Source: Leucosporidium creatinivorum (lineage: Eukaryota > Basidiomycota > Microbotryomycetes > Leucosporidiales > Leucosporidiaceae). From it: DNA of 64,000 nucleotides. The position numbers and the translations under genes were made by a program. Shown in pieces: positions 24,799 to 58,655 of this stretch. Position 1 is the first letter of the stretch; each line of letters starts with the position of its first letter. Where the stretch lies: positions 171,868 through 235,867 of the forward strand of contig BCKL01000036.1 in the NCBI GenBank assembly GCA_001600635.1, written 5' to 3'. Below the pieces are notes generated by a model. That model saw only the letters and a list, made by a program, of their open reading frames with translations. It ran no database searches and was not told where the DNA came from.

Positions 24799-25825
24799 TC
24801 AAGCCCACCTCGCCCTCAGCTCGCCCTCTGATACGCCCGAGCGCCGAGCCTGCCTCGGCGTCAAAGAGGGAAGATGAGTCATGCTCAGCTGCTGCTGCTG
24901 GCGCTGGTGCTCGTCGACGTCCAGATCGTACGCCAAAATGTTTGCAATCAGATCCTGTTGTTGCTGGTGATGTTGGCGCCCGCTCTCGATGGTCTGTCGG
25001 CGAGGCGGAGTTAGCTCGGCGCTTGCAAGGAAGCAGCAAGGTGAAGATGACCCTTCGGTAACGCTTAGCATAAAGAAGAACCTACATAAAGCAGTTTGTT
25101 AGCATCAACACAAGGCTATCACCGCCGAAGGGTATCTCACCACGGCTCGAGTCCACGCCGAGCTGGACTCCCAGTCTCGCAAGCCGACCCAGAGGATAGG
25201 GTAGAAGCCCCCTTGACCTTTTCCGTGATCCATCATCCAATCGACAGCTACATTGACGAAGTTGCGCATCTCAACAGCTGGGAGTGGGGGATAAGAGCGT
25301 CAGCGTCGGAAGCGAGATAGCTCGGGCCTCGGGGATGAGAAGGGACGAAGAGAAGCAGCCCACAACATGCAGGGTCGAACATGAGCTGTATGACGTGGCG
25401 GTCGGTGAGTCACTGAATTCGCAAGAGGAGGGGTGACAACTCACCCGTAAGAAGGGGATTTTAGCGTTGTATTGAGAGATGTCGCGCGCGTAGCGAAATC
25501 CCTTCAGGAAGGGCGTATCATGCGACTTGTTGAGGTGTGCTCTGCCTGGGTGCCTTGGCAGCGTCTCCCTGAGGGTCTTCCTCTTGCCCTCATCATTGTC
25601 CAGGACCAGACGACACCACGATACGGGCTGGCCTTCGCAGCGGAGAATCGCCGAGTGGCCGCCGCCCCCGACAAAGCAGCGCGCGATTGCTGTACTGACG
25701 TCGAGCATGTGCATCAGCATCTCCGGGGTGAGGCGCTCGTCGATGCGAGGCGACGGATAATCCGTGAGCTGATCAGCTGTCGCCGAGCCGGCCCATTGAG
25801 CGGCTTCCTCCCTGGTAATGGGCAT
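24799..25825 (-). CDS. Orphan family copy A, intact
   Basis: Five exons: 25825-25445, 25385-25364 (22 nt), 25277-25141 (137 nt), 25081-25052 (30 nt), 24993-24799; 254 residues, in frame. Family marks: N-terminal MPIT...AAQWAG; RCFV near residue 50; LMFDPAC in the 22-nt exon; PILWVGLRDWESSSAWTRA in exon 3; VLLYAKRYRR in the 30-nt exon; Gln-rich stretch, then SLTPRQARRSGVSEGE and LRARWA at the very end. Intron 4 uses an unusual GTCATC donor. No signal peptide or membrane helix is seen, so a soluble intracellular protein is likely. I do not know a function. Convergent with the zinc-cluster gene 277 bases away. Confidence 0.75.
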
Positions 25826-26632
25826 GTCGGTGTTGTAGAGAGCGTTAGACGATAAACCGAGTGAGGCAGCGGAAGAGAAGCAGCGCGAGAAGGGAGTCAC
25901 CGAGAAGCAGTGTTCTCCGCGGCGGGAGCACAGCAGAGAGGCGTAAGCAGCAGTGCAACGATGCAGGCTCGCAGGGCTGTCTGCTGGACGAAGTCCGCCT
26001 AGACATAGACTCGGAACAGCTGAAGACGAGCAGATCTCGGCAAGGAGCAGGAGCGAGACGGAAGGAGAGAAAGCGAGCCGCTCGCTCAATTCGCCTCTTC
26101 ATCTCTCGCCCTTCGTTTCGCCGCTTCAGCTCGCCCGTTGCGCTCCAAGCGCTCTCGGATTCAGCTACAGGACTATACCAAGCGCTCCCTGCTCCCTCAA
26201 CTTCCCTGCACCTCCCTTTCCCCGACTTGAAAAGCGAAGCTCGACTCGCCTCTCGCTTCCTCCTTCTCTCTCGTCTCGCTGGGCTTCCTAGGAGCGCTGT
26301 GCTAGCAGCAGTAGCAGCAAAGGTGAGTTCTGAGTACCGTGGGCTGGTTGGAGAGGAGCCAGGATTAGGATTGGGTGCAGAACGACAGCTAGAGCCTGTC
26401 CCTCTGGCTGCTCTCTCTGCTGCTGGAAGAAATTGGGCATGCACCTATCTCAAAGCTCTCTCAGCGGAGTCTAGCTGTATTTATGGCTACGTGGGTAGGT
26501 CTCCGACCCAGCTATCGAGGTGCACAACCGCCGAGCCGGGCGAGAACGAGAGCAGGCAACAACGGGCCGACGCGCTGGAGCTGGAGCTCTTGAGCTGACA
26601 GACATCTGGCACACAGTCCTTCTAGCACAGTC
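25826..26632. other. Divergent promoter region
   Basis: Between family copy A (-) and MSH5 (+). Several overlapping open frames on both strands, none coherent. No gene called. Confidence 0.45.
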
Positions 26633-29600
26633 ATGTCCATATTCCCCGGCTCCATCAGCAACCCCGGGGTCAGCAATCGCGGCTCTTCGCACTCGGCCGA
26701 GCACTCACCCTCTCTCGGCGTCGCTCAAACCCACACTCCCACTCCTCAATACTCTCCTCCACCCGATGACTACCTTCGCAAAGTCCACTGGGGCTCGCCC
26801 GAGTTCTTCTCGCAAGCTCAGTCGCAGGAGGGGGGGCAAGCAGCGCCGACCGAGGCAGAGGGGGAGGCCGCCTCGCAAGCTCAGAGCCAGCAAGAAGAGG
26901 AAGAGGAGGAAGGCTGGAACGGTCAAGGGGGTGAGAGTGTGTTGGCAGTCACGGCGATGAAGGGTCTGGTCGGTTGCTGCTACTATGATGGGCAGGCAGG
27001 CAAGCTTTACTTTCTGGAGGATCAGCGCGACTCGGCTTCGTGGGATTTGACCAACATCGGTGAGCCCTCCCTGATCTCTAGTAGCTTTTGATGCTAGCTG
27101 ACGCACACCTCTGTCCTTAGTCCTCGTGCAACTGCTCCCCTCGACCGTCCTCACCTCCGCCAACGCCGACTCCAACTTCCTCGCCTCGCTCGAAGCGACT
27201 CTCCACTCGCTCCCCATCACCAACGCCTCCTCCTCCTCCTCGAGGAACACCACTTCCGACGCCGACCCCTCTGTTCATCTCGAGTACCGCCCAGCCCGCG
27301 AGTTCTACGCCGGTCAAGGGCGCAACGCTCTCACTCAACTGCACGTCGTCGAGGGAGGGATGTACGACGCCGAGGAGAAGGCTGCTTTGGGCGACGAGGC
27401 GGCTGGGGAGAGCTCTGGTGATGAAAGTGAGATGAGGAGTGGGAGTGGAGGGAGGAGGGATGCCTATGAGTTTGGGAGGAGGAAGGGAAGGAGAGGAGCG
27501 GAGAGGGCGGGGGAGTTTCAGGGTGATAGGGCGAGGAGGAATGGCGTTCTGAGGTTGGAGAGCTTTTTGAATGGCTTGGACGCTAGTCCTTTGACGGCGA
27601 GTATCTCTCTCTCGGCGTGGAAGGAGGAGGAAAGCTGACCGGGATTTGATCTGACAGCTCGGTTGCGCTGGGGCTCTGCTCGCTCACATCTCGAGGTCGA
27701 TGAGCTGTGCTGGAGAGCTCGAGGTGCGGGAAGGACTTGCTGTTGCGGGAATCGAGCTCATGCACCTGTATGTGGCGATGAAGGTCTCTCAAAGCGGCGC
27801 CGAGCTCATCTCCCGTCTTGACGCTGCAGGGACAAGGTCATGCACATCAATTCGGACGCTCTTGCGTAGGGCTCAGCTCTGTCCTTGGACACCAGCAAGC
27901 GATCGGTGCTCACACACTCTCCTCACAGCTCCCTCCAGATTTTCAACGACGAATCTCACGCCTCGATGCACTCGGCGAAGACGAAGGAAGGCCTATCGCT
28001 CTTCGGCAAGCTACTCCTGACTCCCGCCCGGCTCAACAGCACTTAATAATACGTTTTGACCTCTCCAGGCATCCTCAACCTCGCTCGTACGCCACTCGGT
28101 CGTCTCCTCATGCGCAACTGGTTCCTTCGCCCTTCGCTCGACCTCGACGTGATTGAAAATCGTCAAGGTGCTGTCGAGTGCTTCCTTCGCTCCGAGAACC
28201 GTGGGTCGCCTCCTGATGTCCTATCTTCCCGTTGAGTCCCTCGCTCACACTCTCCTCTTACAACTCAACAGAGCACGTCGCCGACGCTATCCAAGCCAAC
28301 TTTCGCACGGTCAAGAACGCTCCCAGGAAGATTAGAACGCTCGCGAATGGTCGAGGAGGGATTCCCGAGTGGCAGACGGTGTGGCAGGTAAGCCGTTGAG
28401 CCTCGACGCGGACAAGCGAGTAGCTGAGCGCCGACTCCCCATCGCCGAAGTTTCTCTACAGCGCCATCATGATCCGAGATGCTGCGCTGAGCTTGGTGTA
28501 TCGTCGTGGAGTTGATGTGGTGGAGAAGGTGAGCTTGGGTTTTGCCAGATCGTCTCAGAGGCTCACGCGTCGTCGCTGCAGCTCCTCGCCACCTTCGACG
28601 CCGACGAGTTCAAGGCGCTGGGCAACATGATGAACGACGTCGTGCGTCTCGCCCCATCACCTTGAACTTTGCGTGAAGCTGAGGACCTTCGCCCACAGAT
28701 CGACTGGGAGGAGTCGAGCAATGCCGGCCGAGTCAGTGTCAAGTCGGGGATCGACCACGAGCTCGACGAGCTACGCAGGTCTTACGCTGGTCTCCCTTCG
28801 CTGCTGGTGAGCTTGCTGGAACGTTTCTGAGGCTGTTCCCGCCTTGTTGACGTGCTCGCTGCTCTGCTGCAGTCCCGTGTCGCGAAAGAGATCGGCGCCG
28901 AGATCCCGCCTGGCTTCTCCCCGACGCTCTCCGTCGTTTACTTCCCTCAGCTCGGCTACCTCATCAACGTCCCCTACTCTGATGGAGTTACCGATCCCGA
29001 GCGCTGCGAAGCCATCGGCTGGGAGTTTCAGGCGAGTCGGAGCGTGGGTGAGGGACAGAGGAAGCTGACCAGGCTGCTCGCTCTGCACCGCAGTTCGTTA
29101 CCGAGCAGTTCGCCTATTTCAAGAGCGACAAGTGCAGGGATTTGGATCATCATCTCGGCGACATCCACTCGTTCATGCTGGGTGCGTAGGCTCGAACCGG
29201 CAAGCCCTTTGCTCACCTTTCCCCCCCGCCTCGCGCAGACAAGGAGATCGAGATCTGTAGGTGCCAGCGTAGCTTTGGAGATGCTGAGCATGTAGCTGAT
29301 TCAACTATCTACAGTTCAGTCTCTCCTCAGCCATCTGCTCGACCAGGAGGCTGTCGTTCTCGCGACTTGCGATGTTCTCGCCGAGCTCGACTGGTGCGCC
29401 TCGCTTCTCTGCATACCCTTGACGCGCCCTGACCGTTCTCTCCTTTAGTCTGCTCGCTTTCGCCGAAGCTGCTCGCCTCTACCACTGGAACAGGCCCAAC
29501 ATGACCGACGAGCCCGTCTGCAGAATCAGTGGGTGAGTCGAGCGCCCGGTGTCGCTCGTCCTCCTGCAGCTCATCAGTCTTCTCTTACACAGCGGACGTC

Positions 29601-31052
29601 ACCCTCTCGTCGAACTTTGCGTCGACTCCTTCGTCAAAAATGATCTGGCCTTGGCAAGTGAATCGTAGACCTTCGGCGATCAGCTCTCACTCATCTCATT
29701 CACAGAGGGGTGGTCAAGGAGCTCCTTGGGGCGCTGCTAAAGAGGACGTCAAGCCTGATATCGAATCGGTCGAAACAGAGTACCTCGACCCCAACAGGAG
29801 CATGCTCATCGTCACCGTGAGCTCGATTCGCTCAATCCCACCGAGCTGCACTCACCTGACGAACGAGCAGGGCGCCAACTACAGCGGCAAGAGCATCTTC
29901 CTCAAGCAAATCGCGTTGATCACGTTCATGGCTCATATTGGTGTGCTCCAGCCAGTCAGAGAAGCTCTTGAACCCGCTGACTCTCGCCCATTCAGGCTCC
30001 TTCGTCCCCGCCGAGCGAGCTCAGATTGGGATCACCGACCGCATCCTCACCCGTGTCTCGACGAGGGAGTCTGTCACGAGGGTGAGAATTCGCTGCTCGG
30101 TACCCAGCAAAGCGCATGGACTCATTTGTTCGCTGTACAGGGATCCTCGGCGTTCATGATCGACTTGCAGCAGATCTCGTAAGCTCGTGGTCTCGTCCGC
30201 ATCTTTATGCGGTTCACTAAGCGCTACCAAATCTACAGTTTCGCGCTACGCAACGCTACGGCTCGCTCTCTTCTCATCATCGACGAGTTCGGCAAGGGCA
30301 CCGAGAGCGACGATGGAGCGGGACTCTTCTGCGCCGTCATGGAGCACTTGATCTCGAGGGGAGAGGATACTGTGAGCTCGTTTCTGCCTGATATCTAGCT
30401 TGAGCCGAGCTAACCCTTGTCACTCCACCACAGCCTCGCATCGCCGTCGCGACTCACTTCCATAGTGCGCCGCAGATGCCTCGCCCTCGTACTCTCGTCG
30501 CTGACCTGCCCTCCTCCGCAGACATCTTCGCCAACAGCTTCATCTCCAAGTCACTCCCCATCAGCTACACTCACATGGAGGTCCTCATCCACGAGTCGAC
30601 GACGGGCTCCTCGATCGCTTCATCGGCCGACTCAGACCTGACCTACCTCTACCGGTGAGCTCTCCCTCTTCCTTGAAGCAAATTATTCTTACACGCTGGA
30701 GGCTCTGCTGACCCATCAAGCCAGCCTCCGGCCCTCGCTCGCTCTCATCTCCCACGCCGCTGCCTGCGCCTCGCAATTCGGCATCCCCTCCTCGGTGCTC
30801 AATCGCGCCAACAAAGTCTCCACCGCTCTCCTCAAGTTCGAGATCGACTCGATTGTCAACGAAGCGCTCACCGAGGAGGAAGCGGAGGAGCTGAAGTGCG
30901 GTGAGGCGGTCGGAAGGAAGTTGCTCGAGTGGGAGATGGGCGAGGAGGAGTGGGCGGATGAGGATGTGGGGAGGGAGCAGGTGAGGAGGAAGCTTGCGTG
31001 GGTGTTGGGGCTGGAGGAGAAGGAGAATGAGTGTGGGGGAGCGGAGATGTAG
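26633..31052 (+). CDS. MSH5: Meiotic MutS homologue 5
   Basis: Twenty-four exons join in frame to 1012 residues, spanning 4.4 kb. Residues 741-748 are the Walker A GANYSGKS, followed by FLKQIALITFMAHIGSFVPA, TRVSTRESVTRGSSAFMIDL and the Walker B region LLIIDEFGKGTESDDGAGL and ATHFHNIF. The SFVPAE and FMIDLQQ segments are those of Msh5, not Msh2/3/6, and there is no mismatch-recognition FYE motif. Msh5 pairs with Msh4 to stabilise crossover intermediates in meiosis. The N-terminal 300 residues carry extra Gln/Glu/Ser-rich sequence. Four introns (27597, 28006, 29032, 29654) start with GC instead of GT, and exons of 36, 18, 38 and 31 nt occur. The splicing-dependent integrity suggests a functional gene, so the organism probably has a sexual cycle. 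Confidence 0.93.
27597..27657 (+). other. GC-AG intron (MSH5)
   Basis: Donor GCGAGT after ACG, branch-like GCTGACC at about 27634, acceptor CTGACAG. Joins LT to LGCAGALLAHIS in frame; no GT donor nearby keeps the frame. Confidence 0.75.
28006..28068 (+). other. GC-AG intron (MSH5)
   Basis: Donor GCAAGC after TTCG, acceptor CTCTCCAG. Restores the conserved frame LFGILNLARTPLGR. Confidence 0.75.
29032..29093 (+). other. GC-AG intron (MSH5)
   Basis: Donor GCGAGT after TTTCAG, branch-like GCTGACC near 29064, acceptor CACCGCAG. Joins GWEFQ to FVTEQFAYF. Confidence 0.8.
29654..29705 (+). other. GC-AG intron (MSH5)
   Basis: Donor GCAAGT after TTG, acceptor TTCACAG. A GT two bases on (GTGAAT) would shift the frame into a stop, so the GC donor is preferred. 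Confidence 0.7.
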
Positions 31053-31263
31053 CGAGAGATCAAGGGCGCCGAGTTGCCGTAGAATCGCTTGTGCTTGACA
31101 GATCTCACCACTTTCACGCCAGCTCTCGAGAACAGGCGAGCAAGGAGCGCAGAGCAATGACCGTAGAGAGAAGCGAGTAGATTACTATCTTGCCTTCCAG
31201 CTACAAGCTCGGTCGTTAAGCCAGCCCATCTTCGAGAAAGCAGCGTCGTCGCCTCGGCCAGCC

Positions 31264-33331
31264 TCATCCCTCGCTCTTGATCTTGATCTTCGGCGCCAGG
31301 GGATCTGAAGACGAAGGGGGATCCTGTGCCGTTTCCTCATCGAACTTAGGCTTGGAGTCCTCCCCCTCGGCGGAAGAGAGGACGAGTCCGAGGTCGACCA
31401 TATCGAAGGTGCTGATTGGAGGAGAGGACGCGCGACCGTCGGCGATGGCGGAGAAGGTGATAGTGGCTGGTTGGTTGGTAGGTGAGGATGAGGGCGTGGG
31501 TTGAGGGGTCTCGGGACAGAGGATGATGGGGCCGGCTGTTGGAGGGGGGGATGGGATCAGCTCGGCCGTGGGAGGAGCGAGGAGATGTGAGACAAGCTCA
31601 CGCTTGACATCCTTGGCCGGCTCGACGGCAGGCTCGACGTCCCTCGACTTGACAGCGAACTTCCAAAGCCCCTGCTGGTCGACCACCTCACCCGGATCCT
31701 CGCCATCGTCATGCTTGCCCTCCCCCTCACTCTCAGCGCCCTCATCCCACCCCTCCCACCCCCTATTGAGCATCAACTCATCCAATCTCCCCGCCTCCTC
31801 CCTCCTAACACCCCTACATCCCACCCCCATCCTCTCCTGCACGACCAGTTCCTCCTCCCCCTCATCCTCAGGAGGCGGCTCCAGATCCTCCACCTCAAAT
31901 GCATCAAACACGAACACCTCCTTCAATTCCTCCCGCTGCTGTCCAGTGGCGCAGCAGGGTCCTGTCCAGCCGATATACTCGGGGTCGACGAAGGAGGGTG
32001 AGAGTGGGGGGAGGGACATGGAGGAGGCGAGAGCGGACCAGTAGGCGTGGGAGGAGGGGGCGAGGTAGTAGGGAGCGAGAGGGTCGTCCGGTTCGGCGGG
32101 AGCGGGAGGAGCGGGAGGTGGTGGAGCAAGCGTCGAGAGCGAGTCGGTGGTTGCGTGGCTCCCGCTGGCGGCAGCGGCGGCGGAGAGAGCGGTGAGCGTC
32201 GAGGAAGATCCGATAGTAGCTGCTGTAGCGGAAGAAGAAGGAAGCTGCGCCGTTTCAAGCTTCAAAGGGGCGGTCGGCGCGCCATCCTGCGAGAACTCGA
32301 GGATCTCAGAATCCCCTGCATCTCCTTCATCGGAGCCAAAGTCCATGGGCTCAGAACTGAGATGAGGAGACGGGTCGTAGGCAAGCGGCTGGGGGTCGTA
32401 AGCAGGGTGAAGGAGCGGCGAGGGAGCTGCGAGGGCGGGGAGTTGGCCGAGCTGGGAGTAGTCGGCTGGGATCCAGGGCTCGGGAGCTGTTACGAGTGCT
32501 TCGAGGGTGCGAACGTCGCGGTCAGGATCTACTTCAGCGGTAGGGCTTCGAGGACGACGAGCTTGGTAGCGAGGTTTCGAAAGAGCTGGAGTGGGAGGAG
32601 TGGGAGGTCGACCGACATCTGTAGTCGTGCTACCGTGCGACCCACGACGAGAGGGAATGAACAGCCGTTTGGCGGTTTTAGCGCGATCTTCTGCGCTAAG
32701 CTGTCCTTGGGCCGAGGGGCGTTTGAGAGCTGGCTTGAGGTGCGAGGGAGGCGCGGGTTGCGAGGTTTGAGCCCAGTTCGGGGTGTTGAGCAAGGCGGCG
32801 CGAGCTCGAGGATCAGTCAGCACTGTGGAGAGAAATCGTCAGTGGCTGAGTAACCGATTCGACGCAAGACTCACCTCCGGTATCGCTCGTCTGCTCGACC
32901 GAGCTCGTCAAGCGTCCCTTAGCAGCTTCCTGGCGCAACACGTCCTGATATCGTCGCTGCATCTCGTAAGCTTCTTCCTCGGGGAACTCGCTAGGCGGAG
33001 CTTCAAACTCGAGCGGCTGAGCTTTAGGACGAGGCGGAAAGGGCGAAGGACCGAAAGCGAAGCCAGGCTCGGACGGCGCCTGCTTGAGACCAACTGGTCT
33101 ACCGAGACCGCGATTCTTGTGGGTGTTTGTGCGCAAGCCTGTAGTCGCCTTGTGGGCTTGGTGTGAGCGAAAGCGTGGCGTACCCGAGACGTCTTCTTGG
33201 CTGTTGAGCGAGTGGGGGAGAAGCGAGTCAGCTCGGCGTGGGCGGAGAGCTGCAGGACTACAGAGCCCGACGTACTGACGCACAGCCTTCTTTTGATGCG
33301 CCCTCTTCCCGCCTCCCATCCAGTTCGACAT
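31264..33331 (-). CDS. Hypothetical protein with SUMO-type motifs
   Basis: Three exons (33331-33276, 33200-32875, 32822-31264) give 646 residues. The N-terminal 60 residues are basic (MSNWMGGGKRAHQKKAVRH and later KATTGLRTNTHKNRG), then a short helical, Glu/Arg-rich segment (EEEAYEMQRRYQDVLRQEA) and a long Pro/Ser/Ala-rich, acidic remainder with Trp-containing patches. Sequences of the form hydrophobic-K-x-E recur: LKLE, VKRE and, at the extreme C-terminus, IKSE, which fit SUMO attachment sites. I do not recognise a family; a nuclear, mostly disordered protein is the best reading. It converges on MSH5, with 211 bases between the stop codons, and diverges from LPD1. Confidence 0.7.
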
Positions 33332-36500: not shown

Positions 36501-37088
36501 ATGATGATGTAGTAGGATGTACGTTCGGCTCGTTCTCACCCTCAGCCGTCGCCGAAAGCTGACCCTTCGCTTCTCGGCTCGAACAGGTGGTTTAGTCGGT
36601 TTTAGTAGTCACGATCAAATGCACAGATCTCTCGTACACAGGACTACGGTGTTAACACGCCTCGCAACCGCCAGCCTCTATTTCTCGTTCTCGACGGACA
36701 GCTCGGCGATGAGGCTCAGCTCAAGAGCGAGACCTTCGCAGCGGCTCGACCTCGCCCGACCTACAGCCGATTTCTCTGTACGCGCTCACAGGAAGGTGGA
36801 GCCAATGCAAGACCTCAGAGCCCTGCTTACAGCTCTTCTGACATGCACCTGGCTCCTCGGCGATGGCTGCTCTGCGCCTCGACTCTCCGTCTTGCTCCCT
36901 CTTGAAGCTCTCTTAGCCGCTCTTCTTTACGCCCAAACCGGACTGCACTGCACTTCCCCCCTTGCGGATTCCTAGATCGGAAGGAGTTCAACGTCGCGCT
37001 CCGCTGAGAGCCAAGCGGAGCGCCGAGCATCGGTTCAAGCGCGCTCTCGTTTCTTGCTCGTCTTCCTGCCTCCTTCTTGCTTTCAAAC
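36501..37088. other. Intergenic
   Basis: 3' flank of LPD1 and leader of family copy B. No gene seen. Confidence 0.4.
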
Positions 37089-38143
37089 ATGCTCACCGAC
37101 GCTCAAATCCTCGAATGGGCTGGGCACGCGAACGCCGAGACCCTCGTTCCCCTTCCGACCGAGCCCGTCTCTTTCGTCCACCTTCAGCAGCTCGTCGACT
37201 TCAGCTCAGCGGTGGCTCACTGCTTTGTGGTCGCATACCATACGTTTCCCCTGGACGTGTTTCACGGACCGGATGGTACCCACCTCTTCCAACATGAGCA
37301 TGATTTGGCTGATCATGTGCTGAGGGATGACGAGATCATGGTGGACCGCTTCAAGCTCCATCACCGTGACATCTCTGTCCGCCTAGGTGCTCCGGTGCAG
37401 GCAGAGGTGAATGCTTATCTCAAGAACTTCGGCCACGACCACCGACAGCCTCTCCCGAAGGTGAGTCGACTCAGCTTTCCCTCAAGGGTCACCAGACTGA
37501 CTGAGTTGCTCTACTGAGTACAGTTGATGTTTGAGCCAGACTTGAGTAAGCAGCGAGGCCTGCACATCCACTTGTCAAGCTCCAAGTCGGTCGACCGGGG
37601 CTGACGCTCGTGTGGTTCTTTGCTTCGCAGGCAAGACGATGCATCGCTACATCAACAAAGCAGTCAGGGATCTCAAGACCTATGCATTGGAGCGCAAGAA
37701 CTTCATCCTTTTCTTGTGGGTTGGCTTGAGAGAGTGGGAAAGCTGCTCGGCGTGGACGAGGGGCAAAGTGAGTTGGTTGAGTTTAGATCTGCCTGCTGGT
37801 TTGTGCTTACACGCTATATCCTTACACCAGTTACTGCTGCTTGCAAGGGCAGTCGTGAAGGTGAGCACACTCCAGCCCAATCACGCTGCAGCTGACCTTC
37901 CGCGATCAGTTCGGAGCATCGACTTACTGGCAGCCGGCCGACCCTCACCACATCGACGGAAACCCGAGTCTTGCGGAGCTCAACCGTCTACTAGGATCTA
38001 TGGGACTCTCGCCTTTCCAACCTGTACTTGGTGCACCGTATCTCAGCATGGCTCATCTCCCATTCCTTTCGCCGAGGCAGGCTCGGCGTTCGGGCGTATC
38101 GGAGGAGGAGCTGAGGGCGAGGTGGGCCTTGAGCTACTTGTAG
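37089..38143 (+). CDS. Orphan family copy B, intact
   Basis: Five exons: 37089-37460, 37524-37545 (22 nt), 37631-37767 (137 nt), 37831-37860 (30 nt), 37910-38143; 264 residues. Most divergent copy: N-terminus MLTDAQILEWAG, HCFV near residue 46, LMFEPDL, LWVGLREWESCSAWTRGK, LLLLARAVVK, then a longer last exon before PFLSPRQARRSGVSEEE and LRARWALSYL. It alone has four extra residues after the motif. The identical exon plan shows common descent despite weak protein similarity in the first exon, where the central part differs greatly from the other copies. No signal peptide or membrane helix. Function unknown. Confidence 0.78.
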
Positions 38144-42674: not shown

Positions 42675-43690
42675 ATGCCCCTCACCTCGGCGCAAGCTCA
42701 AGCATGGGTCGGCGACACCTCGGCCAACAAGCTCGTCCCCTTCCCTGAGGGCCCTGTTGGGATCATCACTTGGGACATGTTGAAGCCCATTTTCGATTTC
42801 CGAGCCGATGTTTACCATTGCTTCGTCCCCAGCGGGCCCACCGAGCCTCTCTTTCCCCTCCAGTCGTCCGCACTCATTGACCGCTGCAACAGGATGTTGG
42901 AGGCGGACAGAAAGAAGCTGGCGCATGTGAGCGAGCACTAACCCAAGAGCCGAGCATACCCGGCGGATCAAGAAGGGAATCTCCTCAAGAGCTTCAGCTA
43001 CATCGAGACGGATCTCCCTTTGCCCGGTCTCAAGAACACCACTTTTGCTACGGTAAGGGATTGCACCGGAAATATATAGTAATACAAGCTCAACCTCCTC
43101 CACTCCTGCAGCTCATGCTCGACAAAAGCCTTTGTAGGTGTCTGCCCCTCGGCGCTCGGCGTTGGAAGCTTCGGGGCTAATCTTTTGTCGGGCAACACCA
43201 GCTGAGCAGGTGCATACGTACATCAAGAAGGCAGTGAGAATCATGATGACGTATGATCTATCTCCTCGGTCGTTCAATCCGCTGCTTTGGGCGGGCTTGC
43301 GAGACTGGAAAACCTGCACGGCGTGGACGAGGGGCAGGGTGAGTCGGTCTTGCTGCTTTTGCTTCTCATTAATCGCTTGGCTGACGCGTTTGTAATGTAT
43401 ATTAGGTGCTCATTGCTGCTAAGGAATACCGAGAGGTGAGACGACAAGCTGGCTGCTCAGCTCGGCAGCCTTCTTTGCCTGCGCCGAGACGACCTTGAGC
43501 TGATCTCTCCGTCCGTACGCAGAAAATTACAGCGGCAGCCCAGGCGCACGATACCGCAGAAACCAACCGCCTTCTTGGGCTCATGGGCATGGACCCCGTC
43601 CCCAGCTCGGCTCACCTTGCTTCGTTGACGGCGAGGCAGGCTCGGCGCTCGGGTGTTTCGGAGGAAGAGCTGAGGGCGAGGTGGGCTTGA
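42675..43690 (+). pseudogene. Orphan family copy C, one in-frame stop
   Basis: Full five-exon family structure: 42675-43052, 43112-43133 (22 nt), 43202-43338 (137 nt), 43406-43435 (30 nt), 43523-43690. All junctions are clean and every family block is present: MPLTSAQAQAWVG, YHCFV, LMLDKSL, FNPLLWAGLRDWKTCTAWTRG, VLIAAKEYRE, and SLTARQARRSGVSEEE with LRARWA. However, TAA at 42939-42941 interrupts exon 1 after KKLAHVSEH; the frame continues unchanged after it and still aligns with the other copies. An intron bridging it would be only 21 nt, so a nonsense mutation is the simplest reading. Otherwise undamaged, which means the lesion is recent, or the stop is read through, or it is a sequencing error. 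Confidence 0.7.
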
Positions 43691-49613: not shown

Positions 49614-50617
49614 TCACGCCCACCTTGCCCTCAGCTCCTCCTGCGACACTCCCGAACGCCGAGCCTGCCTCGGCGACAATGAAGGAACATGCTTCCTCAA
49701 GGAGTGGAGATGATCTGAGCTGGGGACTGGGTCCAAGGCCATCTCCGCAAAATTCTTGGCGGTCTCAGCAACGTTGTGCGTACGAGCTCTCTCCAATATC
49801 TAGGTGCGAAGAGGTCAGCTCACGTTCGGCGCAACTTGCACAGGCGTTTCCGAATCTACTAGCACGCAAATCTTACACCTTTGTACTCCTTAGCCAGGAG
49901 CAGAACCTATTAAAGAGATGACCAGTGTTAGATAAGCTCTACAACGACCGTTCAACCTCTCACCCTGCCTCGCGTAAACGCCGAAGTCGTCGTCCAATCT
50001 CGAAAGCCTGCCCAGAGGAGCGGCATAAAAGCTAGCTCCGACCGTCCATACGTCATCATAATCCTCAGGGCGTCCTTAAGGTATTGGTACATGAGCTCGC
50101 CTGGGAAGAGTGCATCAAGATCAGTGAAGCCGCTCAAACAAGTGAACGCCGAGCGCCGCCACCGCTCACCGAGGGCCTCGTGGAGCATGAGCTGAAGAGG
50201 AAGAGTGAGCTCATATACGAGGCAAAGGTAAAAGACTATACACACCCTTGCAAAACCCGTCGTGCCGCTAGAAGGTATTGGCAAGTCCTTCTCGGCGTAG
50301 CTACACCCTTCCCGAAAGGTCTGCTCGTCTCGCGCCCGGAATGCGTGGCTCGAACCATCTTTGTCCTTGATCCGAATGAGCTTATCACTGTCCCTCCCCA
50401 GCACCTTTCGACACTGAGTAATGAAGCTCAGCGGAAGTCGATCTTGAAAGAGAGGTGGGGATTCTCCTCCGTCGACAAAGCAGTGAACGACGGCTATGCG
50501 ATAGACAAGAATCGACTTGAGTGTAGAGATGGTCATGGGCCCAGCGGGATAGCCGGCCAGTGCGTCGGCTGAAACGCCCTTTGCCCATTTTCTCGCTTGG
50601 TCCGAAGTGATGGGCAT
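49614..50617 (-). CDS. Orphan family copy D, intact
   Basis: Five exons: 50617-50246, 50191-50170 (22 nt), 50100-49964 (137 nt), 49906-49877 (30 nt), 49799-49614; 248 residues. Reads MPITSDQARKWAKG, HCFVDGGESPPLF near residue 47, AFRARDEQTFREGCSY, LMLHEAL, MPLLWAGFRDWTTTSAFTRG, VLLLAKEYKG, DPVPSSDHLHSL and finally SLSPRQARRSGVSQEE with LRARWA. Closest to copies C, E and F. A leader block upstream (about 50693-50754) matches the leader of copy E. Soluble by appearance; function unknown. Confidence 0.78.
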
Positions 50618-50692: not shown

Positions 50693-50754
50693 GTCGAGCA
50701 AAGCCTCGGACCGCCCCTCTGAGGCGCGGAGATGCAGACAGCGCCCTCGGCGAT
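50693..50754 (-). repeat. Leader block shared with family copy E
   Basis: Read on the minus strand: CATCGCCGAGG, then TCTGCATCTC, CTCAGAGGGGC and GTCCGAGGC in the same order and similar spacing as at 55587-55640, about 80-90 bases before the start codon in both. Confidence 0.6.
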
Positions 50755-50871: not shown

Positions 50872-52980
50872 TCAACCACCCCTCACGCTCCTCTCCCAAC
50901 CCCTCACCCTCCGCCTCACCAACTTCAAGTTGTCCTCCCGGAATACCTGCTCATCCCTCCTCCATTCTTCCCTTCTAACACCGTTTCCATCTAATGCCGC
51001 CGCAAGGTTGGGAGTGGAAGACCGAGAGTGAGGTTGGTGGACGAGGGCGTCGATATCTCGGACGAAGGAGAGGGCAAGGTTGATGGAGTGGAGAGAGGGT
51101 GGTGGGAGGGTGGCGAGGGCGAGGGAGGCGGTGGGTGGCAGAAGGGCGATGAGGTGCTGTCGAAGGGTCGAAGAGCGTGAGAGGAAAGGCAGGGAGAGGC
51201 AGAGGGAGGGTGAGGCGAAGTCAGCGCGAATCCGAGCCAGCGAGGGAGGTCGCTCGAAGTCGACAGGAAGAGCAGGGGTCAAAAAACATCACGCACCTGC
51301 GCCACTGCGAGCGCATCTACCGGCGACCCCTCGAGGTGCAGTGGCCGCTCGTTGTGCTCCACCCTCGGTGCTGGAGGCGGTGCAGGATCCCTCCCCCTCC
51401 TCATCTCGGCGGGCGAGCCATTCGAGCTGTTAGAGCAAGAAGTCGTCAGCATTATTCGAGGGGAATGGGCTTGAAGCCAGAGCGAGATGAACGCACCCTC
51501 TCAATCCACCTACTACCTCTCCCAGCTCCCTCAGCTCGCCTTGTAGACGGGCGATGTAAGACCGAGCTTCACGGAGTTCGGCGAGGAGGTCAAGTTGGGG
51601 CTGGTTTGGAGGCTGTTGGCGCTGTGGGGAAGGGTTGCCGTTCGGTTGTTGAGGGAGAGGTGGAGGGGGGAGCTGAAAACCCGGGAAAGGAAGATGCTGG
51701 TCAGCTTTCGGGAATCCGAAAAGTATGACCTAGCAAGTAGCGCACCCCATTGCCATGCCCTGCCATCCCATTCCCTCGCCAGCTCCCGCCGACCTTCTTG
51801 CCTCGCCTCGCCTCATCTCCCTCCTCCTCGCTACTCGCCTCCCGCTCCCGCTCCTCCTCTACCTCTACCGGAACTTGCTGTTCTGGAGAGCCAGCAGAGG
51901 ATGAAGGCGAAGGAATGTTCCGCAGTCGAGAACGAGGGCGGTTTTGTTGAGGAGAGGTGGGGGCCGAGTTGATGATGGAGGTGAATTCGGAGAGGACCTT
52001 TGTCGTAGCGATGGAGATTGAAGTCAGTCATAGAGACTTTGTGAGCTCCTTACAGTCTGATTACAGTCTGAACGTACCTCATCCGCCAACTCGGCGATCT
52101 CATCCTGCTCGCCTGCCCTCGGCCGAGCAGCCTCCCACTGACCTCCCCCGCCCGCTCCTACCCCTCCCTCGTACAGCAGTGTTACATCCTCCTCTTCTTC
52201 TTGCTCCTCTTCCCTTCCCGCCGCTTCTCGCCGTCCTCCATTTCCGCCGAGCGCCGACCCCTGCGCCTGCCTCCAACTCAAGCCCGCCATGCTCCCAGGT
52301 AGAGGGCTCGGGCTATCCGGCAGCTCCTCTCCTTCCCCATCAAGTTGAGCCTGTCTCGCTGAAGGAGGCGGCGGAGGAGCCTTCGAGTTGGAAGCGGCCG
52401 AGAGGGAGCGATCCCTTCGGAGTTGGGAGCGCGAGTGGGCGCGAATGGAAGGGGAGGTGGTCGATTCCGAGGCGGGGAGCGAGGAATGAGTGTCGGTAGG
52501 TTCGTCGCGCTGATGAGGTGCAGCAGGGGAGGCGACGGGCGGAGTGGAGCTCCGGGGAAGTTGCTGTTGCCGCTGGTGAATGTAGGAGAGTGATGGGGAG
52601 TAGCTCGACTGTCGCTGTGGCTGCTGTTGCTGTAGCCTTGTATCCTCCTGATCGTCCTCCTCGTCGTCCAAGAAGGCCATCAATCTGCTCAACGAGGGCA
52701 TGCTCCGCTCGTCGCCGCTTGCTCCTGCTCGGCTGCTGTAGCTCCCTCCGCTCGTGACGCTGCTTCCACTCTCTCCTGTAGCTTTATAATTCTTGCCACC
52801 CCTCGGCCCATGCGAAAGCGGTGTATCCCCTCGAGGATGCCGATTGTTTGTCGTCGAGTGAGAGGCTCCAGAGCGATGCGATGTAGCCGAGGACGAGGCT
52901 GTATCCCGATAGGTGTCGGTGAGATCTTGATCCGTGAAAGCGAGCGTGTGCTGCTGTACGAGAAGAGGCGAACGAGACAT
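50872..52980 (-). CDS. Hypothetical coiled-coil protein
   Basis: Exon 1 (52980-52078) encodes 301 residues of Ser/Gln/Pro-rich sequence with an acidic patch (REEEQEEEEDVTLLYEGG). Four further exons follow to the stop at 50872. They hold an acidic stretch (PVEVEEEREREASSEE), a clear heptad helix (QLDLLAELREARSYIARLQG then ELRELGEVVGGLRG), a Pro-rich linker and a final helical part (HLIALLPPTASLALATLPPP, then INLALSFVRDIDALV and a basic end VRRRVRGWERSVRGG). Most junctions agree in phase; the donor of exon 2 (GTCATA assumed) is uncertain. I do not recognise a family; a scaffold or spindle-pole/cytoskeletal coiled-coil protein is possible but unproven. Confidence 0.6.
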
Positions 52981-53355
52981 GACGAGGCGAGCGAGAAGTC
53001 AGCTGTCAGAGGGAGAGAGAGAGGCGAGCTGAGCGCGTCGCGTATGAGGTGCAGGTGTAGAGAATAGCAAAGGGGGAGGACAGACCTGCAGTATCCTGAG
53101 CAGAGGCATTCTGTCTTGCTTTATAATAGCTGCAGCTCGCAAGGAGCCCACAGCCCCTCTTCGGCGATGGTTCGCTCCGACCATTCGCAGCTCTCGGCGC
53201 TCTGCTCCAAGACTAGCAGACAGGTGATATAGTAGTGACAAGATCAAGAAAACATCAGACACTTCAAAAACAAATCCACAGCGCGCGTCGCCCAGCGCCT
53301 CCAACGTCGGCGCCGAGCTCAACCCGAGCGGCCCCAACTCCTCGACGACCACCAC
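52981..53355. other. Intergenic
   Basis: Between the start of the coiled-coil gene and the stop of the stress-protein gene, both minus strand. CGCCGAGC occurs at 53311. No gene seen. Confidence 0.4.
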
Positions 53356-55088
53356 CTAACTAAACGTCTCGAACCTCTTCATCTCCTTGCCACTCTTCTC
53401 CTTCTTCTCCTCCTTGCCTCCACAACTCCAGAACCCACCCTTCCCACTGCTGGACTCCTCACTCGTCCTCCCCCTCTCCTTCTCCTTCTCCCGATTCCGG
53501 TCCTCCGGCGCCGTCGTCACTCGCTCGAGACTAGCTCCTCGACTATGGCCCAGCATGGTGGTGGAGGTGGTGGCGGAGGAACCGAGGAGAGAAACGTAGG
53601 ACCGTTTCCGGTCGGAGCGTTGTTCGAGCGATTCGCGCACTTTGTCCACGGGCTTGACCACGATGACGGGGACGGGGGAGCGGGCGACGGACCATCTGGT
53701 GTTGAGCAGAGTGGGGAGGTGGCGAGATGGTGAGGAAAGTGGTGGGGATGAGATTAAGACGGGGAGAGGGACCGAGGGAGGGCGATGAGGGCGAGAGAGA
53801 GCGAAGAGGACAAGGGCGGAGCAGAGGATGCGTGTGGAAGGGGAAGCAAAGAAATGGAGTGCGGACACGAGAAGTCAGCCCCCAGTCTCGAACATCAAAC
53901 ACTTCAGCCGCAGCTCCCGAGCCTTTGGATCCTCGGCGCTCGTTGCTGCAACCCTCGAACTCACTTTGAGATGCTGCCCATGTACGCGCCCATCTTGAAG
54001 ATGCTCTCTTGTCGTCCACGGGTGCCGACGATGAGGGAGTCGGGTCGGTAGATCTCGATCATGCTGTTGGGAGGGGGAGGGAGTGAGCGAGCGCCGAGCT
54101 GAAGGCCGCGAGAGACCGACATACCGGTGAATCGTCTCCTCGATGGGACCGATGGCGAATTCGACGATGATGGAGATCTGTAGTGTAGCAGCAAGGTCAG
54201 CATCATGTCTTAGTCGTCCTCGGCGCTTCCGCTCCGAGCTCAGACGTCGAATTCACCTGCTTCTCCTCCCCATTCCTCTTCATCACTCCCTCCAATACAC
54301 CTTCCGCCTCTTCCCTCGCCTCTTCCATCCCGCGCTGTCCCGCCTTCCAAGTACTATGCGCCGAGCTGCCGGGATCAATCACTCGGAGCACAACAATCTC
54401 ATCGTGGTCCTCGGTTATGGAATCGAGGGTCCAGTGTAGGGCGTGCACCGAGTATTCTGGTGTAGTAGACGAGTCAGGGGGGAGCTGCAGGAGAGGAAGG
54501 AGCCTATGGCTCACCGTTCAGATCGGTAGCGACGAGATAAGTCCGAGTGGCCCTTGTGCGGATGAAGCAGGACGATTTGGCGCTGATGGTGAATGAGTAG
54601 TTGACGCCTGTGATTTACGCGAAGGTCAGCTCTGTAGCTGTGCACGATCCTCAGCCGAAACACGCACCCGTCCCTCCGCCCGTCGACCCGCCCTTCTCCT
54701 CCAAATCTGCCCCCGAGTCGAAGGTATCGAAGCCGACACGTCTGCTGTACTGCGGTAGACTCCCGTTGCTCTGATTGCCCGGTCCCAGCCCGCTGGAAGG
54801 CAGCTCGTTGCCCGTCGTCGTCGTCACCTGTTCTGAAGCCGGCGGCGGGCTGCAGGGCGCTTGAGGAGCAGCTGCCGTGTCGTCCAGGTCGACGCCTTCT
54901 CTCGGCTCAGGGTGGACATGCCCGTGCTTCAACGCCGAGCGGAGATGCAAAACGCCGTTGGAGGAGGGAGGCGAGTTGGCGGGCGAGTTTTGAGGTGAAG
55001 CCTCGCGTGAGTAGGAATGTAGGGCTCCACGGTCCCGTGAGGAAGTGCGCCGTCTATCGATCAACGGCCGGATTGGCTGAGCGGACAT
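53356..55088 (-). CDS. Universal stress protein (UspA) domain protein
   Basis: Six exons from ATG 55088 to TAG 53356. The N-terminal 140 residues are Ser/Pro-rich and disordered. The Usp fold follows: VNYSFTISAKSSCFIRTRAT, VHALHWTLDSI, DEIVVLRVIDPGSS, the helix GMEEAREEAEGVLEGVMKRN, ISIIVEFAIGPIEETIHR, YRPDSLIVGTRGRQESIFKM and the nucleotide-loop end GSISKWSVARSPVPVIVVKP. This layout is that of fungal Usp proteins such as those of S. pombe. A basic, Ser/Lys/Glu-rich tail of about 100 residues ends GGKEEKKEKSGKEMK. Cytosolic stress-response role inferred from family; nucleotide binding is plausible because the G-x2-G motif is present. Confidence 0.88.
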
Positions 55089-55726
55089 GCTGAGGTGCAG
55101 AACCGAGGTAAAGAATGAGAGAGAAGGGAGAGAGGCGGGCGCGGCTGGGTGGGGTTCAAGAGGAGGGCAGGAGCTGCAGGCTACTGCAGAGCTGCACAGA
55201 TAGCTAGTCGAGTATATTTAGACCGTGTCTGCTCTGCTGCAGCTGAAACCAGCGAGCAGCGCCGACCCCTGACCGAGACCGAGCTTCCTGAGCCAGTTCA
55301 GGACTATATGAGGGACTCAGAGGGCCATTGAGGAGGATGGTCGTGTACAAAACGCTGTCTATGATACATTGAGACTGCCGCTGCCGTTCAAAACGTACCA
55401 CGCGCTGAGCGAGATAGCGCCGAAGTCCTTCGCCGAGCAGAGTCAAAGGCTGGCGCTGCTTACTAACAGGGACGAGGAGCTTTCAGAATGCGTCGATACG
55501 TCTCGTTATATGCTCTCCCGCATCTGTGGATGTGCATCCTCCCAAGCTCTTCGGCCGCCTACCAGGTGCCGGTTGTCCAGCGCCGACATCGCCGAGGTTT
55601 CGTCTGCATCTCAGAGGGGCTGTCCGAGGCCTTGTCCGACGTCGGTTCCGGATCCTGCAGCTTCTTGCGCTCCTCTTTCTTCCTCCAATTTTCCGCCACC
55701 TTCTGCCGCTCTTCCATTCCCCGAGG
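55089..55726. other. Divergent region, leader of family copy E
   Basis: Between the Usp gene (-) and family copy E (+). Contains the leader block shared with copy D at 55587-55640. No separate gene seen. Confidence 0.5.
55587..55640 (+). repeat. Leader block shared with family copy D
   Basis: CATCGCCGAGG, TCTGCATCTC, TCAGAGGGGC and GTCCGAGGC in the order and spacing seen upstream of copy D. Confidence 0.6.
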
Positions 55727-56749
55727 ATGCCCATCAGCTCGGCACAGGCGAGGGCTTGGGTCGGCGAGAAGTGAGTGGACAACTACGTCCCCCTGCCGAA
55801 TGACCGCATCACTTACGGAACACTGGCACCAATACTTGAGCTGCAGTCCGCAATGATGCACTGCTTCATTTCTGATGGGTCAGCTCCGCCCCTTTTTGCA
55901 CTCGAAGCCCCGACCGTCGTCGCCCGCTGTCAAGAGGTGGTGAACAAGGCTAAGGAGAAGCTCAAGCTGTGTGAGGAGGAAGAGGTGCATAAGTTTGCCT
56001 TCAGGAAGCAGGATGAAGGGATCTTGCAGACAGGGCTTAGCTACACCGAGCTGAAGCCTCCTGGACCCTCGGCCAAGGCTGGATTCGCCAGGGTGAGTAC
56101 TGTAGCTGACAGCGTACTTGAGGATCTCAGCTCACTCTGCACTCCCTGTGCCCCCTTGCAGATCATGCTCAATGGTGGCCTGAGTGAGTTGGAATGCTCG
56201 GCGCTTGGCGCGGCGGCTCGGCTAATGCTCGCTTTCCGGCTGTCAGGCCAGCAAATGTACAAGTACATCGAGCGTGCGGTGGGGCTCATGATGATTTACG
56301 GCGGATCGGATCGGTCGTTCAACCCGCTGCTATGGACAGGCTTGCGAGACTGGAAGAGCTGCTCGGTGTGGGCAAGGGGCAGGGTGGGTCAATTTCTACG
56401 CGTTTGGTCCTTGCCGAGCAACAAGCTGACGCATAGTTTACATACTGTAGGTCCTACTGGCTGCCAAAGAGTATAGAAAGGTGAGAAAGACAGAGCACAC
56501 AGCAGCTTTCCCCTCCGAGCGTGTCGGCCGAGCTTTGCAGCTGGCTGACCTCCGCTTTCACAGAACCTTGAGGCTATTAAGGCGCACGACACAGCCGAGA
56601 CGAACCATCTTCATGCGCTCATGGGTATGGACCCTGTGCCCGGCTCGTCCCACCTCCACTCCTTGGCACACCATATCCCCTCGCTAACGCAAAGGCAGGC
56701 TCGGCGCTCGGGCGTATCAGAGGGGGAGCTGAGGGCGAGGCGGGCTTGA
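55727..56749 (+). pseudogene. Orphan family copy E, one in-frame stop
   Basis: Five exons: 55727-56092, 56162-56183 (22 nt), 56247-56383 (137 nt), 56451-56480 (30 nt), 56564-56749. TGA at 55772-55774 interrupts the frame after MPISSAQARAWVGEK; the same frame then continues VDNYVPLPNDRITYG and aligns with the other copies. The TGA lies inside a donor-like GTGAGT, but splicing there would leave the frame and delete a conserved block. Later blocks are intact: HCFISDGSAPPLF, AFRKQDEGILQTGLSY, IMLNGGL, FNPLLWTGLRDWKSCSVWARG, VLLAAKEYRK, DPVPGSSHLHSLAHH, and SLTQRQARRSGVSEGE, ending LRARRA (W to R). An in-frame ATG downstream of the TGA (about 55853) could give a shorter product. Confidence 0.7.
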
Positions 56750-57628
56750 GGAGTAGAGAAGCTGCTAGAGCTGAGGGAATTTTAGCCTTTGGTACAGCTC
56801 TAGCGGGGAGCTTTTTCAAGCGAGCGGCGCCACAGCGAGCTTAAAGCGAGATCATCAGTCTTTCAGCCTGAGAGTGTGAGGTAGGTCGCGTTGCTGCTCC
56901 TGTTTCGGCGCTTCTGCGATGATTGATCTCGCTTTGAGAGAGACAATGCCACAGCTTCCCGTATCAGACCTCTAGCCCTCTCTCATACAGCAGTCCTCAG
57001 GCTGCTAAGTTCCCGCTCGGCGATCGCTGCTCCCTGTTCACACGCCCTTCAGCTCTCTCCTGGGCCGCTCGCTGGTGAAGAAGAGAGTGTACAGATCATG
57101 CTGTAAGCCTACGATTTTACGTCTGACAGCTGCCCTCAATGTCAACGCCCCTTACGTCGCGCCTTGCAAAGCGTCAAGTTACTTCGGCTGCGCCGAGCAG
57201 CTCAAACGCACTCACGCTCGAATGGAACCGGAGACAAGATTTGAAGGCTCTCCATGCCCCAGTAACATCATTCTCATCTAGAGTTGTAGCAAGCTAGATC
57301 CGAGTCATCTAAGCGTGCGAAGAGCGAAAAGGAGAAGCCAACCCGGCGGCTCCGAGTCGAAGCAAGTCCGAGTCTCTTCTTCTCGCCCCCCGTCGTCCAA
57401 GCTTGCTTCTGCTTCATCTCCGTTTTTCAAACGCTGTTTCCAAGCTCTGCCTGCCGCCCGACGCTTGCTGGAGGCGGTGTACGTCGGCGCCCGAAGTCCC
57501 GAAAAGCGCTCCGCCGAGACCTGCTGGCGGAGCGCGAGGCTGGCCAGTGCAGTGCAAAGCGCAACGCTCTCTGGCTTCTCTTCTGCTTCTCCTTCTTTTC
57601 TTTCATTTCTTCTCTTACGTCTTTCAGC
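56750..57628. other. Intergenic between family copies E and F
   Basis: 879 bases between two same-strand family members. No gene seen; CT-rich stretch directly before copy F. Confidence 0.4.
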
Positions 57629-58655
57629 ATGCCGGCAGCAGGCATTCGCTGGGACGAGTCGGCCAACTCACTGTTTCCCAACCCGACGAAGCGCCTCACC
57701 GGGGCCACCTTGCTGCCAATCCTGAAGGTCACTACAGACGTGGCTCACTGCTTCGTGCCCGGAGGATCATCCCCTCCCATCATCCCGCTTCATAAACCTG
57801 ATGTCAACTGGGACCGCTGTCAGGCGGTGCTCAAGGACGATGGGGAGAAGCGGGCTCAGTGGCCGGACCACAGGAAGAAGGAAGAGTTGGCGTTCCGGCC
57901 TGCACAGGACACTAACTTTCGCAGGACCCTCGGCGACGTGAAGGAGGTTCCGACTAGCGGCGGTGCCTCCTGCGCCTTCGTCAAGGTAAGTTGTGTCCTC
58001 CCTTCAGATCCTTCACATGCAGAGCAGCTCACAATCCCTCTCAAAACCTAGATCATGTTTGACCTAGCGCTTGGTGGGGCCATAAGAACTCTGCGGTCGG
58101 AAATTGAATCTCGGCGCTGACCTTTCGCGACTTCCACTCCACTTCTTAGCTGAGCGGATGTTCAAGTACGTTGATGCGGCAAAGGACACTATGATCCAGT
58201 GTGGGGCGGGCCAAGGACAGTTCCACAAGGTGCTCTTCATTGGCTGCAGAGATTGGAAGTCGGAGCACATCACGGCTTGGGCACGAGGAAATGTGGGTGA
58301 TGCGCCAGCTGAGATGAGACTGCTCGCTGCCGCCGCTGACGCCTCTACCCTCGACAGATTCTACTGCACGCTAAACAGTACAACCAGGTGACCTATCACC
58401 CCGCCTTCTGCGCCTCAGACCTCTAGCCGAAGCCTGTGAGCTGACTTGCTTCCTTTCATTGTTCAGCTGCCCGAAGTTATCGAGTACCACCGTCGGCAGC
58501 AGGCCCAAGAGCTGGACAGCTTCCTATCTTCCCTCAATACCAATACCTTCGAGCACTGCCTCTCGCATCGTCACGTCCCTTCGTTGTCGCCGAGGCAGGC
58601 TCGGCTCTCGGGCGTATCAGAGGGGGAGCTGAGGGCGAGGTGGGCTGAGCAGTGA
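57629..58655 (+). CDS. Orphan family copy F, intact
   Basis: Five exons: 57629-57985, 58052-58073 (22 nt), 58150-58292 (143 nt), 58358-58387 (30 nt), 58467-58655; 246 residues, in frame. MPAAGIRWDESANSLFPNPT, HCFVPGGSSPPIIPLH near residue 42, LAFRPAQDTNFRRTLGD, IMFDLAL, a more divergent exon 3 (VLFIGCRDWKSEHITAWARG, two residues longer), ILLHAKQYNQ, and SLSPRQARLSGVSEGE, LRARWAEQ. Follows copy E by 0.9 kb in the same direction, the only tandem pair in the set, although F is not its closest relative by eye. Function unknown. Confidence 0.78.

What the first reader, a model, noticed from the sequence alone, without database searches (positions are those of the whole stretch)
24799..58655. Dense orphan multigene family with a locked exon plan
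Six copies (24799-, 37089+, 42675+, 49614-, 55727+, 57629+) lie between unrelated housekeeping genes on both strands. All have five exons: exon 2 is 22 nt and exon 4 is 30 nt in every copy, exon 3 is 137 nt in five and 143 in one. Shared blocks are HCFV near residue 45, LMxD in exon 2, PLLWxGLRDW and AWTRG in exon 3, LLAAKEYR in exon 4, and the C-terminal RQARRSGVSEGELRARWA. I recognise no known domain; six copies in 34 kb suggests a large lineage-specific expansion. The C-terminal motif has a helix-turn-helix-like spacing that superficially recalls wing-helix heads of bacterial AbiEi-type proteins, but this is only a resemblance.
Basis: partly seen in the sequence, partly recalled or inferred. 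Interest (0 to 1): 0.88.

Follow-up and report, generated by a model that had tools for sequence, protein, structure and literature searches.

The report
Clustered orphan yeast gene superfamily
This yeast carries a large family of clustered, fast-changing genes for which no relatives were found in named organisms outside its own lineage; nearly all found copies end in the same short protein tail, several share a mirror-image DNA element in their promoters, and what they do is unknown.

Summary
All six copies have GT-AG introns and the stated exon plan (22, 137/143, 30 nt). They belong to a superfamily: 92 C-terminal tail matches in this 27.7-Mb genome, 82 at E<1e-5, strongly clustered. Subfamilies keep the tail and a 'GxRDW' core. 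Relatives were found only in Leucosporidium creatinivorum and in three proteins of unnamed organisms. Pfam and NCBIfam give nothing above cut-off. A confident, all-helical AlphaFold model of an L. creatinivorum relative (pLDDT 90) matches no solved fold. dN/dS is 0.22-0.55 in eight pairs. New: copies of several subfamilies share a promoter dyad, CGCTCCGC-N-GCGGAGCG; five of its six exact places in the genome lie upstream of family genes, though four of those helped define it. The tail resembles a helix-turn-helix, but AbiEi membership is not supported. Best reading: intracellular helical proteins with a variable front half and a constant docking tail, partly co-regulated, evolving by birth and death. 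Expression and role are untested.

The parts
24799..25825 (-). Copy A: exons 25445-25825, 25364-25385, 25141-25277, 25052-25081, 24799-24993; 254 aa, open
37089..38143 (+). Copy B: exons 37089-37460, 37524-37545, 37631-37767, 37831-37860, 37910-38143 (exon 5 may start at 37934); open, divergent
42675..43690 (+). Copy C: exons 42675-43052, 43112-43133, 43202-43338, 43406-43435, 43523-43690; one in-frame stop in exon 1, likely pseudogene
49614..50617 (-). Copy D: exons 50246-50617, 50170-50191, 49964-50100, 49877-49906, 49614-49799; 248 aa, open
55727..56749 (+). Copy E: exons 55727-56092, 56162-56183, 56247-56383, 56451-56480, 56564-56749; in-frame stop at codon 16, likely pseudogene
57629..58655 (+). 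Copy F: exons 57629-57985, 58052-58073, 58150-58292, 58358-58387, 58467-58655; 246 aa, open
24802..24855 (-). C-terminal tail of A (18 codons)
38075..38128 (+). C-terminal tail of B
43634..43687 (+). C-terminal tail of C
49617..49670 (-). C-terminal tail of D
56693..56746 (+). C-terminal tail of E
58593..58646 (+). C-terminal tail of F
36996..37023 (.). Promoter dyad of B: perfect 10-nt inverted repeat, loop 8; last base 66 nt before the A of the ATG
57506..57535 (.). Promoter dyad of F: perfect 10-nt inverted repeat, loop 10; last base 94 nt before the A of the ATG

Best explanation
A lineage-restricted superfamily of intracellular, all-helical proteins of about 250 residues. Shown by sequence: exon 1 (the front half) changes fastest, the core around GxRDW (exons 3-4) changes less, and a final 18-residue tail is nearly constant; copies sit in clusters, some are disrupted, dN/dS is below 1, and part of the copies in several subfamilies have a common promoter dyad. 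Modelled: the helical fold. Inferred: the tail, a short helix-turn-helix-like hairpin, docks on one common partner (a protein machine or DNA), while the variable front recognises differing targets; a common regulator acts through the dyad on part of the set; birth-and-death turnover keeps the targets changing, as expected of a recognition or conflict system. My odds: real family with these sequence features 0.93; constant-dock and variable-sensor architecture about 0.5; recognition or conflict role about 0.3.
For: Six models and the recurring exon plan. 92 tail matches, 71 of the 79 within-contig neighbour gaps 50 kb or less. Core likeness beyond the tail between window type and C5 copies (E down to 2e-6) and four C5 loci not used to build the core profile (E 6e-14 to 5e-12). 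dN/dS 0.22-0.55 in 8 chosen pairs; exon-1 dN above core dN in 7 of 8. Body tree: one supported split (97/90) with L. creatinivorum and own-genome members on both sides, so the variety predates the species split. Fold model with mean pLDDT 90.3, five models 88-90, no PDB match (best E 0.72). No membrane span or hydrophobic start in A, B, D, F by hydropathy. Dyad within 2 mismatches in 13 of 42 family promoters against 1 site in 94.9 kb elsewhere in those loci; about 200 shuffled-arm dyads hit 0.53 promoters on average, 5 at most.
Against: No expression, binding or phenotype data. The tail region is modelled at lower confidence (block means 55-77 over residues 211-245). 29 of 42 promoters lack the dyad at this threshold, all 6 C9-type and the C15 one among them. 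The dyad was defined on some of the same promoters, and related copies (such as the two C19 ones) are not independent. At 3 mismatches the contrast is weaker: 19 sites in 14.0 kb of promoters against 28 in 96.0 kb elsewhere, and 17 sites in the window besides B and F. No significance test was made for dN/dS. A constant tail could equally be a localisation or stability signal.
Confidence: 0.5

Rival explanations
1. Selfish conflict genes that work like the fission-yeast wtf spore killers: multicopy, rapidly diverging, with dead copies, kept by biased transmission rather than by use to the cell.
For: Lineage restriction, clustering, in-frame stops in C and E, a stop in C36:72710 that lies at the exon 4/5 junction and may be a misplaced border, and one pair with no synonymous difference in exon 1 but diverged later exons, as gene conversion would give.
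Against: No membrane spans, whereas wtf proteins are multi-span (recalled). dN/dS below 1, mostly lowest in the core (6 of 8 pairs). No tails on the contigs with the STE3 match (C25) or the best homeodomain match (C24), though a weaker homeodomain match on C13 lies about 109 kb from two tails. No drive data.
Confidence: 0.12
2. DNA-binding regulators: the tail is a working helix-turn-helix that binds the promoter dyad, so members regulate themselves and each other.
For: Tail spacing A-x3-G-V-x4-L typical of helix-turn-helix motifs (recalled pattern), two modelled short helices at 227-232 and 237-244, the only recurring Pfam match is a helix-turn-helix model, below cut-off, and dyad sites at family promoters.
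Against: Below every curated cut-off, and shuffled tails score as well with other families; the tails are near copies of each other, so the recurrence is not independent. Only two short helices, no wing. C9-type copies have the tail but no dyad in the 6 promoters examined. The dyad also fits a fungal zinc-cluster CCG..CGG site (recalled).
Confidence: 0.15
3. A domesticated or still mobile element family rather than ordinary genes.
For: Many copies on several contigs and DNA-level likeness of the tails (33 matches at 81-97% over up to 60 nt).
Against: Conserved multi-intron structure argues against retrocopies; no Pfam domain of any element was met; tail likeness is confined to a short coding stretch. 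Target-site duplications were not looked for.
Confidence: 0.05
4. Chance frames or a gene-finding artefact.
For: Long open frames occur on both strands in this GC-rich window.
Against: Matching splice plans, similar annotated proteins in another species, dN/dS below 1.
Confidence: 0.02

Closest known systems
Hypothetical proteins of Leucosporidium creatinivorum (BCR35DRAFT_335118, 336595, 335126, 335113, 336152)
   Same: Clear relatives, E 4e-33 to 8e-130; 335113, 335118 and 335126 lie on a contig of the same listed length (111,370); two records (458 and 413 aa) are double, apparently tandem copies merged by annotation.
   Different: Named only 'hypothetical protein'; five found, none of the C9 type (one search scored only the 8000 candidates sharing most words).
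[quoted passage not shown]
   Same: Works-like comparison only: a large, rapidly evolving fungal family.
   Different: No sequence or fold comparison with wtf was made; the present proteins lack membrane spans by hydropathy.
AbiEi_4 (PF13338), bacterial antitoxin helix-turn-helix
   Same: Spacing of the tail motif; weak match over 20-27 of 49 profile positions.
   Different: Best E 0.026, 12.7-14.6 bits against a cut-off of 25; no wing; no AbiEi match elsewhere in the four window proteins.

Membership tests
AbiEi_4 (PF13338) | Pfam score above the curated cut-off (25 bits) | tested here: not met
   4 of 17 tails match, best E 0.026; 3 of 10 C-terminal pieces at 12.7-14.6 bits; 3 of 10 shuffled tails reach E 0.025-0.16 with other families
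AbiEi_4 (PF13338) | Complete winged helix-turn-helix | tested here: not met
   Two short C-terminal helices of moderate confidence and no wing in either model
wtf-type meiotic drivers | Multiple membrane spans (recalled) | tested here: not met
   Highest 19-residue hydropathy 1.14-1.57 in A, B, D, F
wtf-type meiotic drivers | Transmission bias | not testable with these tools
   Needs crosses
Secreted effector families | N-terminal signal peptide | tested here: not met
   No hydrophobic N-terminal stretch by simple hydropathy in A, B, D, F; no dedicated predictor was used
Mating-type genes or MAT-linked family | Linkage to STE3 or homeodomain loci | tested here: not met
   STE3 on C25 and best homeodomain match on C24, contigs without tails; a second homeodomain match at its cut-off on C13 is about 109 kb from two of the 92 tails
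Myb/SANT DNA-binding proteins | PF00249 match at the tail loci | tested here: not met
   None of the 37 matches coincides with a tail
L. creatinivorum orphan family | Significant similarity of body, and tail | tested here: met
   tails present in P0001, P0003, P0004

The most novel reading that the evidence does not exclude
A eukaryotic repertoire of some ninety one-component-style regulators or recognisers with a new all-helical fold, whose constant C-terminal hairpin binds the dyad placed before many of the family's own genes. The set would form a self-regulating network, with variable front domains sensing non-self or environmental signals.
Probability: 0.1. Interest if true: 0.85.

Novelty: new variant of a known kind. 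Interest (0 to 1): 0.6.

Why it matters
Large orphan families are where new folds and new conflict or recognition systems are found. Here a little-studied yeast holds some 80-90 tail-bearing copies (some disrupted) of an unnamed family with a confident fold model that has no match among solved structures, a near-constant C-terminal tail, and a promoter element found in subfamilies whose front halves do not match each other. The dyad and the tail give two concrete handles for testing function.

Tried and rejected
Known-domain searches: Pfam on four window proteins, on ten pieces and relatives and on tails; NCBIfam on four L. creatinivorum proteins; PDB sequences (best E 0.088, best E 0.00059 from a designed repeat protein in which no single stretch passed). 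PHROGs and PADLOC were not run. Foldseek against PDB and viral models: nothing below E 0.5. None usable.

Protein searches: a tail-only query found 9 candidates, none scored. The C9-type profile gave one 158-aa protein of source 'lgn' (only 8000 candidates scored).

Mating-type linkage was rejected on the main loci, with the C13 exception told above.

Gene conversion as the sole cause of tail DNA likeness is disfavoured: of 47 tails compared (of the 92), codons 1-6 agree between C36 and C5 (codon identity 0.83; 0.26 expected) but not between C36 and C9 (0.18), while codons 7-17 are about equally alike (0.52 and 0.51; about 0.32 expected). Exact CARGCTCGGCGYTCGG has 48 places in the genome (reversed control 0); 31 are at listed tails and 17 are not, so the likeness is not wholly family-specific.

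Dyad: a first pattern written from four C36 promoters has 9 places, those four and 5 elsewhere (reversed control 3). With 7-nt arms there are 8 places, fewer than the 17 of the reversed control, so the dyad is not overabundant; it is the position that is special: 5 upstream of tails, 1 (C17) beside a gene with the core domain, 1 in the C6 cluster region about 10 kb from the nearest listed tail, 1 (window 9211) unrelated.

Paper searches listed no paper that I could see to describe this family; I saw listings and abstract starts, and passages of PMC12093110, no full text. This does not show that it is absent from print.

Full report
Observation. The six copies and their exon plan are real; all 24 introns are GT-AG. 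The 22/137-143/30 plan came out for B and F with only L. creatinivorum protein P0003 as guide. Over 18 loci of the window's neighbourhood type (6 in the window, 12 elsewhere), 14 show the full plan. The four exceptions are two very similar copies with an irregular exon 2 (C36:137197, C36:152832), one with a degenerate 5' part that keeps 22/137/30 (C36:128953), and one locus that did not model and looks C9-like (C38:92246). In-frame stops occur in C and E; one in C36:72710 lies at an exon junction and may be a misplaced border.

Extent. Window protein D gives 108 matches in the own genome. A 35-residue tail query gives 92 matches, 82 at E<1e-5 and the weakest at 0.007. The tool calls its counts lower bounds; the ten weakest, on C6, C7, C13, C15 and C26, may include chance. 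By contig: C5 25, C9 19, C36 15, C19 9, C8 5, C6 5, C15 3, C38 3, C52, C13 and C7 2 each, C30 and C26 1 each. Of 79 within-contig neighbour gaps 71 are 50 kb or less; random placement on one line gives 14 on average and 24 at most in 1000 runs. A core profile also finds a gene on C17 without a recognised tail, so tails undercount the family.

Subfamilies. Between window type and C5 copies the core matches beyond the tail (E 2e-6 to 8e-4), and four C5 loci not used to build the core profile match it at E 6e-14 to 5e-12. A C9-type query reaches a C5 core only at E 7.5e-4. C9 and C19 copies are joined to the window type mainly by the tail and the RDW motif, read by eye; their membership of the core profile is by construction. 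A 30-nt fourth exon appears in C9-type models of L064 and of L020, L046 and L061, but the scoring and the templates favoured that length, and other models of L061 and L017 lack it. Some C5 and C19 copies appear to have exons 3 and 4 fused.

Distribution. A profile of the six copies finds seven proteins: five L. creatinivorum and two of source 'jgi' (7548 candidates scored). A C9-type profile finds one more of source 'lgn'. In the body tree 7 of 20 inner branches are starred and 10 are open; one supported split (97/90) has L. creatinivorum and own-genome members on both sides, so at least two lineages are older than the split of the two yeasts. From these relatives I infer that the genome is a Leucosporidium or close kin; it is not named.

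Selection. For eight chosen pairs dN/dS is 0.22-0.55; it is lower in the core than overall in 6 of 8, and exon-1 dN exceeds core dN in 7 of 8. This is a counting method, with dS near or above 1 in several pairs, no significance test, and three pairs that hold a disrupted copy (C or E) or an irregular model. The pair C36:137197 and C36:152832 has no synonymous difference over the first 125 codons but dS 0.28 in the core, as partial gene conversion or a collapsed assembly would give; both hold ambiguous bases.

Structure. Two AlphaFold models were made, both of L. creatinivorum relatives. The first has mean pLDDT 82.1, with the five models ranging from 82 down to 49. The second, with 24 alignment rows, has mean pLDDT 90.3, pTM 0.81 and all five models at 88-90. 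Both are helical throughout, with short C-terminal helices of lower confidence. Foldseek finds nothing better than E 0.5 in PDB or viral models. 'New fold' therefore means unmatched in those two libraries by that program. Hydropathy shows no membrane span or signal-like start in A, B, D and F.

Tail. Its spacing recalls helix-turn-helix motifs. Pfam's AbiEi_4 is met only below cut-off and shuffled tails give equally good chance matches to other families. I do not file it there.

Tail DNA. In 38 compared tails of C36, C38, C5, C19 and C52, codons 1-6 read AGG-CAR-GCT-CGG-CGY-TCG with few exceptions (33 to 37 of 38 per codon), far beyond codon usage, while the 8 C9 tails encode the residues with other codons. 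The stretch holds GCTCGGCG, which occurs 77 times in the window against 5 expected from base composition and 196 times against 23 under a second-order model in the pooled sequence. Given its own 7-mers the 8-mer is not in excess (78 against 73), so the enriched unit is a shorter core such as CTCGGCG. It is also enriched in eight loci fetched without regard to the family, at a lower rate (16 in 24.1 kb against 2.1 expected). Why is unexplained.

Promoter dyad. In the window three perfect inverted repeats have arms of 9 or more with loops of 4-16; two are in the promoters of B and F. Similar repeats were then seen before C5 copies. CGCTCCGC-N6-20-GCGGAGCG has six exact places in the genome: B, F, three C5 copies, each upstream of a family tail, and C17 (reversed control two places). 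Four of the six were known when the pattern was written; the new ones are one C5 promoter, where the dyad starts 148 nt before the likely ATG, and C17, where it lies downstream of a gene with the core domain and upstream of frames that look to me like a glutathione transferase (by eye). With up to two mismatches 13 of 42 family promoters carry it (C36/C38 5 of 16, C5 5 of 15, C19 2 of 2, C52 1 of 2, C9 0 of 6, C15 0 of 1), against 1 site in 94.9 kb elsewhere in those loci; about 200 shuffled-arm dyads hit 0.53 promoters on average and 5 at most. The window has two further non-family sites at that level. Outside the window the promoter was taken as 1000-1420 nt before the tail, a range chosen after seeing the first repeats. 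C5 and C36 front halves gave no match to each other, so a shared regulator is the simplest reading, but recombination of promoters is not excluded.

Mechanism. Shown: a clustered, lineage-restricted family with dN/dS below 1, a faster front, a slower core, a constant tail and a dyad in part of the promoters. Inferred: the tail docks on a common partner and the front recognises changing targets. A role in recognition or conflict is my preferred guess (about 0.3); DNA-binding self-regulation and wtf-like selfishness are the main rivals.

Noticed in passing
whole window; examples 24842, 37021, 43154, 56699: GCTCGGCG (core CTCGGCG) occurs 77 times in the window (5 expected from composition) and is enriched in other sampled contigs too, in exons, an intron and promoters. 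No explanation found.
   Followed up: partly
L087 (C17:580297): A dyad lies between a gene with the family core but no recognised tail and frames resembling a glutathione transferase.
   Followed up: partly
L025 and L022 (C36:137197 and C36:152832): Two copies on opposite strands with no synonymous difference in exon 1, shared ambiguous bases included, but diverged later exons: recent gene conversion or an assembly collapse.
   Followed up: no
L041, L043, L047: A second inverted repeat, CTCGGCGC..GCGCCGAG, sits about 1.22-1.25 kb before the tail in two C5 copies and one C52 copy.
   Followed up: no
upstream of D (about 50703-50737) and E (about 55604-55630): D and E share an upstream block (CTGCATCTC..CAGAGGGGC.GTCCGAGGC) although their coding sequences are strongly diverged.
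   Followed up: no
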